Part shown: positions 55,414 through 57,876 of the stretch, piece by piece
How positions within the stretch are numbered: position 1 is the stretch's first letter
Layout of the letters: every line of letters starts with the position of its first letter
DNA from: Archangium primigenium
Lineage (GTDB): Bacteria; Myxococcota; Myxococcia; Myxococcales; Myxococcaceae
Length of the DNA stretch: 64,000 bases
Direction: 5' to 3'
Assembly (NCBI RefSeq): GCF_016904885.1
Contig: NZ_JADWYI010000001.1
Span: forward strand, 3,472,001-3,536,000
Program-made: the position numbers and the translations under genes
Notes under the pieces: model-generated
What the model was told of the DNA's origin: nothing
The model's database searches: none
Seen by the model: the letters and a program-made list of their open reading frames with translations, nothing else

Positions 55414-55541
55414 CGGCTCAGGCCTTCACGGTGTGGGGGCGTCATGCCAATAGATTCGAGCGACTGCCCTCCTTGACCCGGTGCGCTCTGTTTGCTTGAG
55501 TGGCTGTTGAACGGGAGCGAGCGGTGGCGGTTTCCTTCCAG

Positions 55542-55621
55542 TGGAGGCGGCGGGAATCGAACCCGCGCCGGGCGGTGCGAAACTCCCAGCAGAATCGCGC
55601 ACTTACCTCGTAACCGCCCGG
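55542..55621 (-). ncRNA. ssrA: tmRNA (ssrA) 3'-end-like sequence, fragment
   Basis: Read on the minus strand, the segment ends with a T-arm (stem 55550-55554 and 55562-55566, loop TTCGATT) and a 7-base acceptor 3' strand CGCCTCC (55543-55549), then A at the discriminator position. This strand has U at position 70 and A at 73, as tmRNA needs for alanine charging, and the GTTCGATTCCCGCCGCCTCCA end is that of many tmRNAs. The 5' half (GGGG start, tag reading frame) is not found in the next 400 bases, and CCA is not encoded. Just upstream CCGGGCGGT pairs with ACCGCCCGG. I read it as a fragment or attachment-site scar, not an intact gene. Confidence 0.45.
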
Positions 55622-55677
55622 AATGCGTGGGAGTCGTCATCCTGCCGCGTCCCCTCCTGTCCCGCCCCATTCCAGGC

Positions 55678-55711
55678 CATTCCGCAGGCTCCTGCGACAT
55701 ACGTGCAACAC
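55678..55711. repeat. 34-base direct repeat, copy 1
   Basis: Begins CATTCCGCAG and continues through TGCGACATACG to GCAACAC. Matches copy 2 at 56005-56038 in 28 of 34 positions by hand alignment; the spacing is 327 bases. Not coding by the pattern of changes. Might be recombinase or transcription-factor sites. Confidence 0.5.
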
Positions 55712-55776
55712 GGCAGTCCCGCACAAAAGCCGGTCGGACTCCTCCTGCGCAACACGGGATGTGCAGGGCAGGGCTG

Positions 55777-56004: not shown

Positions 56005-56038
56005 CATTCCGCAGCGTCATGCGACATATGCGCGACAC
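56005..56038. repeat. 34-base direct repeat, copy 2
   Basis: Begins CATTCCGCAG, then TGCGACATATG and GCGACAC. See copy 1 at 55678-55711. It lies about 110 bases before the toxin gene start, so it could belong to its promoter region. The whole interval 55622-56146 has no believable gene; the only longer frames follow no coding pattern. Confidence 0.5.
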
Positions 56039-56146: not shown

Positions 56147-57073
56147 ATGCGTCTCCAAGCGTGCATCGCACTTCTGCTCTATGTCTCCGCCTGCGCGACG
56201 TCAGCGCCGGGCCCGGAAGATTCCGTGGACTGGGAGCCGGGGTACGCCAACCTCCAGCGAGCGGCGGCCCTGCCCTGGACGGATGGAGGAGGGTGCGTGG
56301 TCCAGGAGGCATCGCGGCCGTGGCCCGTCCTCGCGGAGCGGTGCTATCACGCCCTGGACCATGACCGCGTCGAGTTTCACGACCTCACGGGAAGATGCTC
56401 GGTGGCCTCCGCTGCGGCTGCGACCGTGGGGTTCGGCCTGTGCGTCTTCATGGCGCCGGAGATTGCCGTGGGGGCGGTGGTGGTAACGGGCGTGGTGGTG
56501 GCGGGCTACCTACTCAAAGAGGCCCTGCACACCTACGAATTGCGGAGGGGTCGCCCTGAAACGCGCCCCGTGACAGTGCCGCGCCCGGTGCCTGTTACAA
56601 AGACCGCCCCGCCGAAGCCGTCGCCAGGGCAGAAGTCCAAGCCAGACCCTAAGGGGCCAGATTTTCCTCCCGTGGGGCCAACGGAGGTCGCGGAGCGAGA
56701 GCGCCGCCGTAGGTGCGAGCCCATACCCGTGCCGCATGAGGGCAAGGACGCCGCGCATGACAGGTGCGCAGACCAGTTTCCGCCCAACCGTTACCCCGGG
56801 ATGGATGTGCTCGTGGACGGTGTGAGTTTCGATGCGTTGCAAGTCGGCGTGCCTGTGCTCTGGGAAATCAAGACCCATCGATTCGACACATACCCTGACT
56901 ATATCCAAAATCGGGAGATTGAGAAGGAACTCGAACAATTGCACAAGGAGCGCGACGCGGCACTGGCCTGTAGATATCGCTTCGTTGTTGGCGTGAGCAC
57001 CCAAGCACACAAGGACGCGCTGCTCGCCGTCGATCCCTCTCTCATTGTCGTTGTCACTGGATGCAAGCGATGA
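56147..57073 (+). CDS. SitA-like lipoprotein toxin with C-terminal nuclease-type domain (DUF6310-like)
   Basis: 308 residues. Lipobox VSAC (signal peptide LQACIALLLYVSAC), then a soluble N-terminal region, a pair of hydrophobic segments at about residues 85-118 and a proline- and lysine-rich linker (about 130-180). The C-terminal domain contains PNRYPGMDVLVDGVSFDALQ and VLWEIKTHRFDTY: the Asp and Glu-x-Lys arrangement is that of PD-(D/E)xK nucleases. This matches what I know as DUF6310 of myxobacteria, and lipoprotein toxins with variable C-termini (SitA) are moved between kin cells by outer-membrane exchange. The following gene is translationally coupled (ATGA). GGAGG lies upstream. Lower GC than its surroundings. 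Confidence 0.7.
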   Translation: MRLQACIALLLYVSACATSAPGPEDSVDWEPGYANLQRAAALPWTDGGGCVVQEASRPWPVLAERCYHALDHDRVEFHDLTGRCSVASAAAATVGFGLCVFMAPEIAVGAVVVTGVVVAGYLLKEALHTYELRRGRPETRPVTVPRPVPVTKTAPPKPSPGQKSKPDPKGPDFPPVGPTEVAERERRRRCEPIPVPHEGKDAAHDRCADQFPPNRYPGMDVLVDGVSFDALQVGVPVLWEIKTHRFDTYPDYIQNREIEKELEQLHKERDAALACRYRFVVGVSTQAHKDALLAVDPSLIVVVTGCKR

Positions 57074-57825
57074 ACACGCAAAGCCGCCTCTCCCTGACCG
57101 TCTACGCACCCTCACTCGTGGGTGATGACAACCGCACGGTTGCTGCCGTCCATGGATTGGAACGAGCGTTAATCGACTTACGCTTGGAATGGCGGGTTGA
57201 CGAGCGGCGACGGCTTGCCGCGTTGCCAAACCGCGATGCTTGGTTGGCTGAAGCGGCCACGCGCGGCAAGTTCCCGATGGTATGTAACGAAGATGAGCGT
57301 TACCATGTGATGATTGCCGGGCACAACCGATCCGCGTATGTAAGCCCCGGCGGTCAACCCCAACTTCAAGTTTATGCAAAGCTGCCACTAGACGCAGTCG
57401 TTATCTCGGTAGCGGCGGAGATGCTGGAGCGTATAGCGGAGGGGGCCTGTGCGTTCTGGGGGCATGCGACGCCGGGTGATGCTGCGCTGGACATCGCGTA
57501 TCAAACAGCACCCACGCTGGAAGGGCCGCCATCCCCACGCCGGGGGCTGCCCTCCCTGAAACTCTTCGAGCACATCCGCGCGCCAGAGATTCCTGCCTAC
57601 CTCGGATGGCTGAATTACTGGTCGGCTGCCGCCGCACGGGCCATCGGTTTTCCGGACCCCACGCGTGACGCGGATCTGCTCTCACGCTCACGGCGCACGG
57701 CATCAGGGGGGTGGGTCGTGCAGCTCACCGATTCACCACTCGACCTGGACGACCCGGCCCACCTGGACGCGCTCAAACGGGCCTACGAGCGCTTCCCGGA
57801 GATTGGCGGGCGCGCAGCCCCCTGA
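57070..57825 (+). CDS. Probable immunity protein of the lipoprotein toxin (DUF5953-like)
   Basis: 251 residues, no signal peptide, so cytoplasmic. Coupled to the toxin gene by ATGA; an alternative ATG lies at 57061. Conserved features I recognise from DUF5953 proteins of myxobacteria: VYAPSLVGDDNR, AWLAEAATRGKFP, EGACAFWGHATPGD, and PAYLGWLNYWSAAAARAIGF near the end. The location directly after a toxin gene suggests it binds and blocks the toxin. Two TTA leucine codons (57169, 57178) and a GC content of about 60 percent over 57121-57360, counted by hand, contrast with about 73 percent nearby, suggesting acquisition. Confidence 0.65.
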   Translation: MNTQSRLSLTVYAPSLVGDDNRTVAAVHGLERALIDLRLEWRVDERRRLAALPNRDAWLAEAATRGKFPMVCNEDERYHVMIAGHNRSAYVSPGGQPQLQVYAKLPLDAVVISVAAEMLERIAEGACAFWGHATPGDAALDIAYQTAPTLEGPPSPRRGLPSLKLFEHIRAPEIPAYLGWLNYWSAAAARAIGFPDPTRDADLLSRSRRTASGGWVVQLTDSPLDLDDPAHLDALKRAYERFPEIGGRAAP

Positions 57826-57876
57826 GACTCGGCACAGCTCGCGCCAACCGTGCTCAAAGGCTGACGAAGGAGGGGC

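What the first reader, a model, noticed from the sequence alone, without database searches (positions are those of the whole stretch)
55542..55621. tmRNA 3'-end fragment next to the toxin cassette
T-arm, acceptor strand, U70 and A73 match a tmRNA 3' end on the minus strand, but no 5' half or tag frame follows. The 3' end of ssrA is a classic integrase attachment site, and the adjacent DNA carries lower-GC genes. This suggests the fragment is an attachment-site duplicate left by an insertion.
Basis: partly seen in the sequence, partly recalled or inferred. Interest (0 to 1): 0.6.

Follow-up and report, generated by a model that had tools for sequence, protein, structure and literature searches.

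The report
Attachment-site end of a toxin-carrying island
The fragment is one end of a mobile DNA island that inserts into the tails of tmRNA and tRNA genes; in these social, predatory myxobacteria such islands carry SitA-type kin-recognition toxins or anti-phage defences, so the fragment marks how such toxin genes probably get into genomes.

Summary
The tmRNA 3'-end fragment is real. On the minus strand its last 27 nt equal the 3' end of this genome's intact ssrA, 536 kb away. Nothing upstream of those 27 nt is tmRNA. Instead there is a conserved right arm, recovered in about 60 copies from six genera of the family, ending in a T-loop-centred core.

In relatives the same arm ends integrative elements of about 13-17 kb inserted in ssrA or tRNA-Leu(CAG): gene 3' end, left arm, tyrosine integrase, cargo, right arm, displaced gene 3' end. 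Cargo includes SitA/immunity pairs or a Lamassu defence system. An arm-type motif occurs only twice in the 64-kb window, both times in this right arm, and once beside the integrase in three such elements.

The window therefore holds the attR end plus sitA-sitI cargo of such an element. Its left end and integrase are gone, and no integrase of that family was found in this genome. How this copy reached a site away from ssrA is not shown. Kind: a new member of ssrA/tRNA-targeted islands, with a newly seen link to SitAI toxins.

The parts
55541..55567 (-). 27 nt identical to the 3' end of the genome's own ssrA (T arm, 3' acceptor strand); the attR core
   Evidence: BLAST 27/27 to C1:2991454-2991480; RF00023 32.9 bits
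55555..55561 (-). TTCGATT, the T loop; inferred 7-bp crossover overlap between half-sites (GGG / CCCGCCGCC)
   Evidence: sequence; in 64 aligned copies the sequence 5' of it is element arm and the sequence 3' of it varies with the target, including other tRNA 3' ends
55540..55554 (-). target-side half-site (CCCGCCGCCTCCACT), the displaced gene 3' end
   Evidence: in relatives this half equals the ssrA or tRNA-Leu(CAG) 3' end at the insertion
55565..55715 (-). conserved right arm (type R1) of the element, next to the core
   Evidence: 83-93% identical over about 170 nt in most of the first 19 congener copies; similarity usually stops at the core end
55568..55621 (-). imperfect inverted repeat CCGGGCGGT...ACCGCCCGG inside the right arm
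   Evidence: sequence; a sister arm type (R2) keeps an inverted repeat of different sequence; function unknown
55693..55711 (-). inferred integrase arm-type site 1, GTGTTGCACGTATGTCGCA
   Evidence: only two matches (<=4 mismatches) in the 64-kb window; same motif in INT-side left arms of L053, L172, L173
56020..56038 (-). inferred arm-type site 2, GTGTCGCGCATATGTCGCA
   Evidence: 2 mismatches to the motif
56147..57073 (+). sitA-like toxin gene: lipoprotein signal (LLLYVSAC), SitA-like N-terminal region, DUF6310 C-terminal domain
   Evidence: Pfam PF19829 4.7e-55; homologues beside cores in relatives
57061..57825 (+). immunity-type gene (DUF5953), sitI position
   Evidence: Pfam PF19378 1.1e-117
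57856..57857 (.). left limit of homology with relatives; there the next feature is a (often truncated) TIGR02268/DUF2381 gene whose stop codon lies at this point. Here the left end, with integrase and attL, is missing
   Evidence: shared boundary in 8 loci

Best explanation
The fragment is attR, the right attachment site of a site-specific integrative element, with the element's SitA toxin/immunity cargo still attached. A tyrosine integrase recombines the element's attP with the 3' end of ssrA or a tRNA. Strand exchange takes place in the T loop (TTCGANT). The element's left end restores the gene's 3' end, and the original 3' end is displaced beyond the right arm. In the window the right arm, the core and sitA-sitI survive. 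The left part (attL, integrase, XRE regulator, kinase, DUF2381) has been lost. Shown: the sequence identity, the arm family, the integrase next to the restored gene in relatives, and the displaced gene ends. Inferred: the integrase acts on this core, the crossover position, and the loss of the left end. Not shown: why this copy lies 536 kb from ssrA (ectopic integration or later rearrangement).
For: 27/27 match to own ssrA. Arm plus core in 41 of 96 family genomes and 6 of 26 genera. In G037 the order is ssrA core, INT, then R1 arm plus displaced core, 17.2 kb. In G019 and G025 it is tRNA-Leu(CAG), INT, then R1 arm plus the displaced tRNA-Leu 3' end GGTTCGA(A/T)TCCCGCCTTCGGCAC, about 13.6 and 16 kb; the G019 element carries sitA and sitI. 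In G001, 3.6 kb behind ssrA, a 12.8-kb element reads core, INT, XRE, kinase, DUF2381, sitI, sitA, R2 arm, core: the window's cargo order. Of nine integrases of this 412-413-aa class (one lies in a 595-aa frame) in four genomes, eight lie beside a core. Arm-type motif shared by window right arm and INT-side left arms. Single-core unoccupied relative of one element site. In G003, 13 same-strand versus 1 opposite adjacent core pairs within 31 kb (random same-strand mean 2.2), and 7 of 10 sitA 5' ends within 800 nt of a core (random 0.06).
Against: No attL or integrase remnant was found beside this copy. Flanking host genes have no syntenic counterpart in relatives, so no empty site could be shown. 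Nine other sitA-like places in this genome have no core nearby, so the link is not universal. A few R1 modules stand alone next to host genes (L022, L029, L030).
Confidence: 0.85

Rival explanations
1. The sitAI unit moved as a non-autonomous mini-element: it kept its arms and cores, was integrated at an ectopic, tmRNA-like site by an integrase acting in trans, and lost its left core later.
For: Integrase-less units bounded by two same-strand cores exist, e.g. 2.66 kb in G003 (L039: core, DUF2381 remnant, sitI, sitA, R1, core). Cores are dispersed over the whole 12.3-Mb G003 chromosome.
Against: No left core here; no family integrase in this genome; deletion derivatives of full elements would look the same.
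Confidence: 0.3
2. The attR with its cargo was carried from an ssrA island to this place by ordinary homologous recombination or chromosomal rearrangement.
For: The flank just after the core (CTGGAAGGAAA) resembles ssrA-downstream sequence in G010 (CTGGAAGTAAA, L161). Repeated islands give ample homology.
Against: The similarity is only about ten bases; no longer ssrA-downstream DNA follows.
Confidence: 0.35
3. It is a functional RNA: a split or reduced tmRNA, or a tRNA-like RNA.
For: T arm and acceptor strand are intact; covariance score 32.9 bits.
Against: No 5' acceptor strand, no tag frame, score under the gathering threshold, intact ssrA elsewhere. In relatives the same arm is joined to other tRNA 3' ends.
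Confidence: 0.03
4. Plain partial duplication of ssrA.
For: 27-nt identity.
Against: Identity starts at the T arm and the sequence before it is an arm shared with some 60 other places.
Confidence: 0.03

Closest known systems
tRNA/tmRNA-targeted genomic islands with tyrosine integrases (Islander class, PMC4383910)
   Same: integrase next to the restored gene, displaced 3' fragment marking the far end, tandem accretion behind ssrA
   Different: here the cores are also dispersed widely away from ssrA, and the window copy has lost its left end
Dehalococcoides ssrA genomic islands (PMC3146451)
   Same: many ssrA 3'-end direct repeats bounding modular islands; some islands without the integration module
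   Different: those use a serine recombinase (DsiB) and all repeats lie within 100 kb of ssrA; here a tyrosine integrase and genome-wide spread
SitAI kin-discrimination cassettes of myxobacteria (PMC5562445, PMC10047993)
   Same: lipoprotein toxin with variable C-terminal domain followed by an immunity gene; said to be often on mobile elements or prophage, more than 80 loci in some genomes
   Different: the passages read name no integrase or attachment site; here a defined att core and integrase family are linked to them

Membership tests
ssrA/tRNA-targeted integrative island | intact target gene in the genome sharing the fragment's sequence | tested here: met
ssrA/tRNA-targeted integrative island | displaced 3' fragment, same strand, at the far end of an island starting at the target gene | tested here: not met
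   met in G037, G019, G025 but not for the window copy, which is 536 kb from ssrA
ssrA/tRNA-targeted integrative island | integrase gene adjacent to attL | tested here: not met
   met in relatives; no attL or INT at the window copy. Hence it is filed as a remnant (right end plus cargo), not as a complete island
ssrA/tRNA-targeted integrative island | unoccupied site in a relative | tested here: inconclusive
   found for one relative element, not for the window site
ssrA/tRNA-targeted integrative island | excision and integration activity | not testable with these tools
   needs experiment
SitAI cassette | lipoprotein signal, SitA-like N-terminal region, separate C-terminal toxin domain, adjacent immunity gene | tested here: inconclusive
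   signal read from sequence; DUF6310 and DUF5953 domains; homology to a characterised SitA was not tested, naming rests on architecture and general knowledge
SitAI cassette | TraAB-dependent transfer and toxicity | not testable with these tools
   experiment
tmRNA gene | 5' acceptor half, tag reading frame, score over the gathering threshold | tested here: not met
Dehalococcoides-type ssrA island | serine recombinase DsiB next to attL | tested here: not met
   the integrase beside cores is PF00589 tyrosine type

The most novel reading that the evidence does not exclude
The dispersed cores form a working, integron-like reservoir: one integrase family moves integrase-less SitAI (and defence) cassettes in trans between many tmRNA-like sites over the chromosome, so kin-recognition barcodes are shuffled by site-specific recombination.
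Probability: 0.2. Interest if true: 0.8.

Novelty: new member of a known kind. Interest (0 to 1): 0.5.

Why it matters
SitAI toxin sets decide which myxobacterial cells recognise each other as kin, and they are said to spread on mobile DNA, but no defined vehicle with an attachment site was named in the papers read here. A concrete integrase, core and arm motif would let the gain and loss of such toxins be tracked and tested directly, and ties kin discrimination and anti-phage defence (Lamassu) to one island family.

Tried and rejected
Complete tmRNA or tRNA here: rejected. A second core at the left of the window cassette: none with up to 3 mismatches. Integrase, XRE or DUF2381 remnants in the window: none at E 1e-6. 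Empty window site through the glycosyltransferase or kinase neighbours: homologues only 36-64% identical, no synteny shown. A serine recombinase (702 aa) near some cores: not consistently associated, dropped. Phage origin: the arm pattern is in no viral contig, and the integrase has only distant phage and plasmid relatives, about 26-30% identity. Literature on the DUFs: no paper in the library. A consensus fold of R1 and R2 arms together was weak and is not used as evidence.

Full report
What is there. The window is G000:C1:3472001-3536000 of a 9.49-Mb genome; relatives sharing the repeat include Archangium violaceum and Myxococcus sp. records. On the minus strand, 55564-55542 reads GGGTTCGATTCCCGCCGCCTCCA. 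Rfam tmRNA scores 32.9 bits there, under its threshold of 47, because only the T arm and acceptor are convincing. ARAGORN calls no RNA gene. The genome's intact ssrA lies at 2991118-2991482 and shares exactly the last 27 nt.

It is a repeat end, not a lone scrap. The 96-nt query 55634-55539 has near-full copies at 88-97% identity in each of three congeners, and in 41 of 96 family genomes and 6 of 26 genera; counts are lower bounds because few candidates per genome were scored. The core pattern with up to two mismatches is found 43, 46 and 31 times in the three large congeners against 0-1 for the reversed pattern, but only 5 times in the window's genome. Aligned copies share an arm upstream and, in most, change abruptly after the core.

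The core is an att site. Left cores in relatives read GGCGGCGGG-TTCGATT-CCCGCCGCC, inverted half-sites around 7 bp. After TTCGANT the right-hand side varies with the target: most copies have the tmRNA end, several others have different tRNA-like ends. Two of these were traced. In G019 and G025 an intact tRNA-Leu(CAG) is followed by an integrase, and 13.6 or 16 kb further on the R1 arm is joined to a second copy of that tRNA's 3' end. In G037 the same holds for ssrA, over 17.2 kb. This places the crossover in or near the T loop (inference).

Integrase. Tyrosine integrases (PF00589 with SAM-like N-terminal domain) of the 412-413-aa class, including one in a 595-aa frame, lie next to a core in 8 of 9 cases in four genomes; none was found in G000. 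One 15.6-kb element in G003 (L044) is flanked by identical 23-bp cores, and G002 has an uninterrupted relative of that site with one diverged core; the right flank of that site belongs to a repeated sequence, so this is supporting rather than final evidence.

Cargo. Full elements read integrase, XRE regulator, kinase, TIGR02268/DUF2381, cargo, right arm. Cargo is a sitA-sitI pair (G001 L171; G019 L172) or a Lamassu LmuA/LmuB pair with a PIN protein (G003:205189-218220). In the window, sitA (56147-57073, DUF6310) and sitI (57061-57825, DUF5953) lie in the same order and orientation relative to the right arm. Homology to relatives stops at 57856, where they have the DUF2381 stop codon. The name SitA rests on the architecture (lipoprotein signal, toxin domain, immunity gene) and was not tested against a characterised SitA.

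Statistics in the single-contig relative G003: 13 of 14 adjacent core pairs within 31 kb are on the same strand (random same-strand mean 2.2, maximum 8 in 5000), and 7 of 10 sitA-like genes start within 800 nt of a core (random mean 0.06). In G000, none of the other sitA-like loci has a core within the stretch examined.

Arm motif. GTGTYGCACGTATGTCGCA occurs at 55693-55711 and 56020-56038 and nowhere else in the window, and once in the integrase-side arm of three elements. This is the expected layout of arm-type integrase sites (inference).

Limits. This copy has no left core, no integrase and no empty site. It may have integrated at an ectopic tmRNA-like place, or been moved from an ssrA island by rearrangement; the evidence does not decide. 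Literature: ssrA islands with displaced repeats are well known (PMC4383910, PMC3146451). SitAI genes are described as often mobile (PMC5562445, PMC10047993), but no integrase or tmRNA site appears in the passages found; most subscription papers are not in the library.

Noticed in passing
55568-55621: The right arm holds an inverted repeat; a second arm type (R2, e.g. L044, L045) keeps an inverted repeat of different sequence at the same place, hinting at a folded DNA or RNA. Within R1 some changes are compensatory, others break pairs.
   Followed up: partly
L046 15688, L051 4978, L026 8032 (upstream of core): A third arm type (R3) looks like a stem CCCCGTTTT/AAAACGGGG whose loop could pair downstream, pseudoknot-like.
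   Followed up: no
L049 5293-8697, L084 4279-7704: A large serine recombinase element interrupts sitA-like genes at about the same codon in two loci of G003.
   Followed up: no
L036 2458-11498 (own ssrA island, C1:2991458-3000498): The window genome's own ssrA carries a 9-kb island bounded by a second core; it holds transposase genes and no detectable integrase remnant of this family.
   Followed up: partly
L075-L082: Nine further sitA-like places (on eight loci) in the window genome, most with an immunity-type gene, have no core nearby.
   Followed up: partly
L022, L029, L030: A stand-alone R1 module lies downstream of the same host genes in three congeners, without mobile cargo on its left.
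   Followed up: no
L106, L045, L059-L061, L065: A similar terminator (GATGTAGCA...CCCCGGGCGCC...GGGGTTTTCTTTTT) follows ssrA, several cores and an unrelated gene.
   Followed up: no
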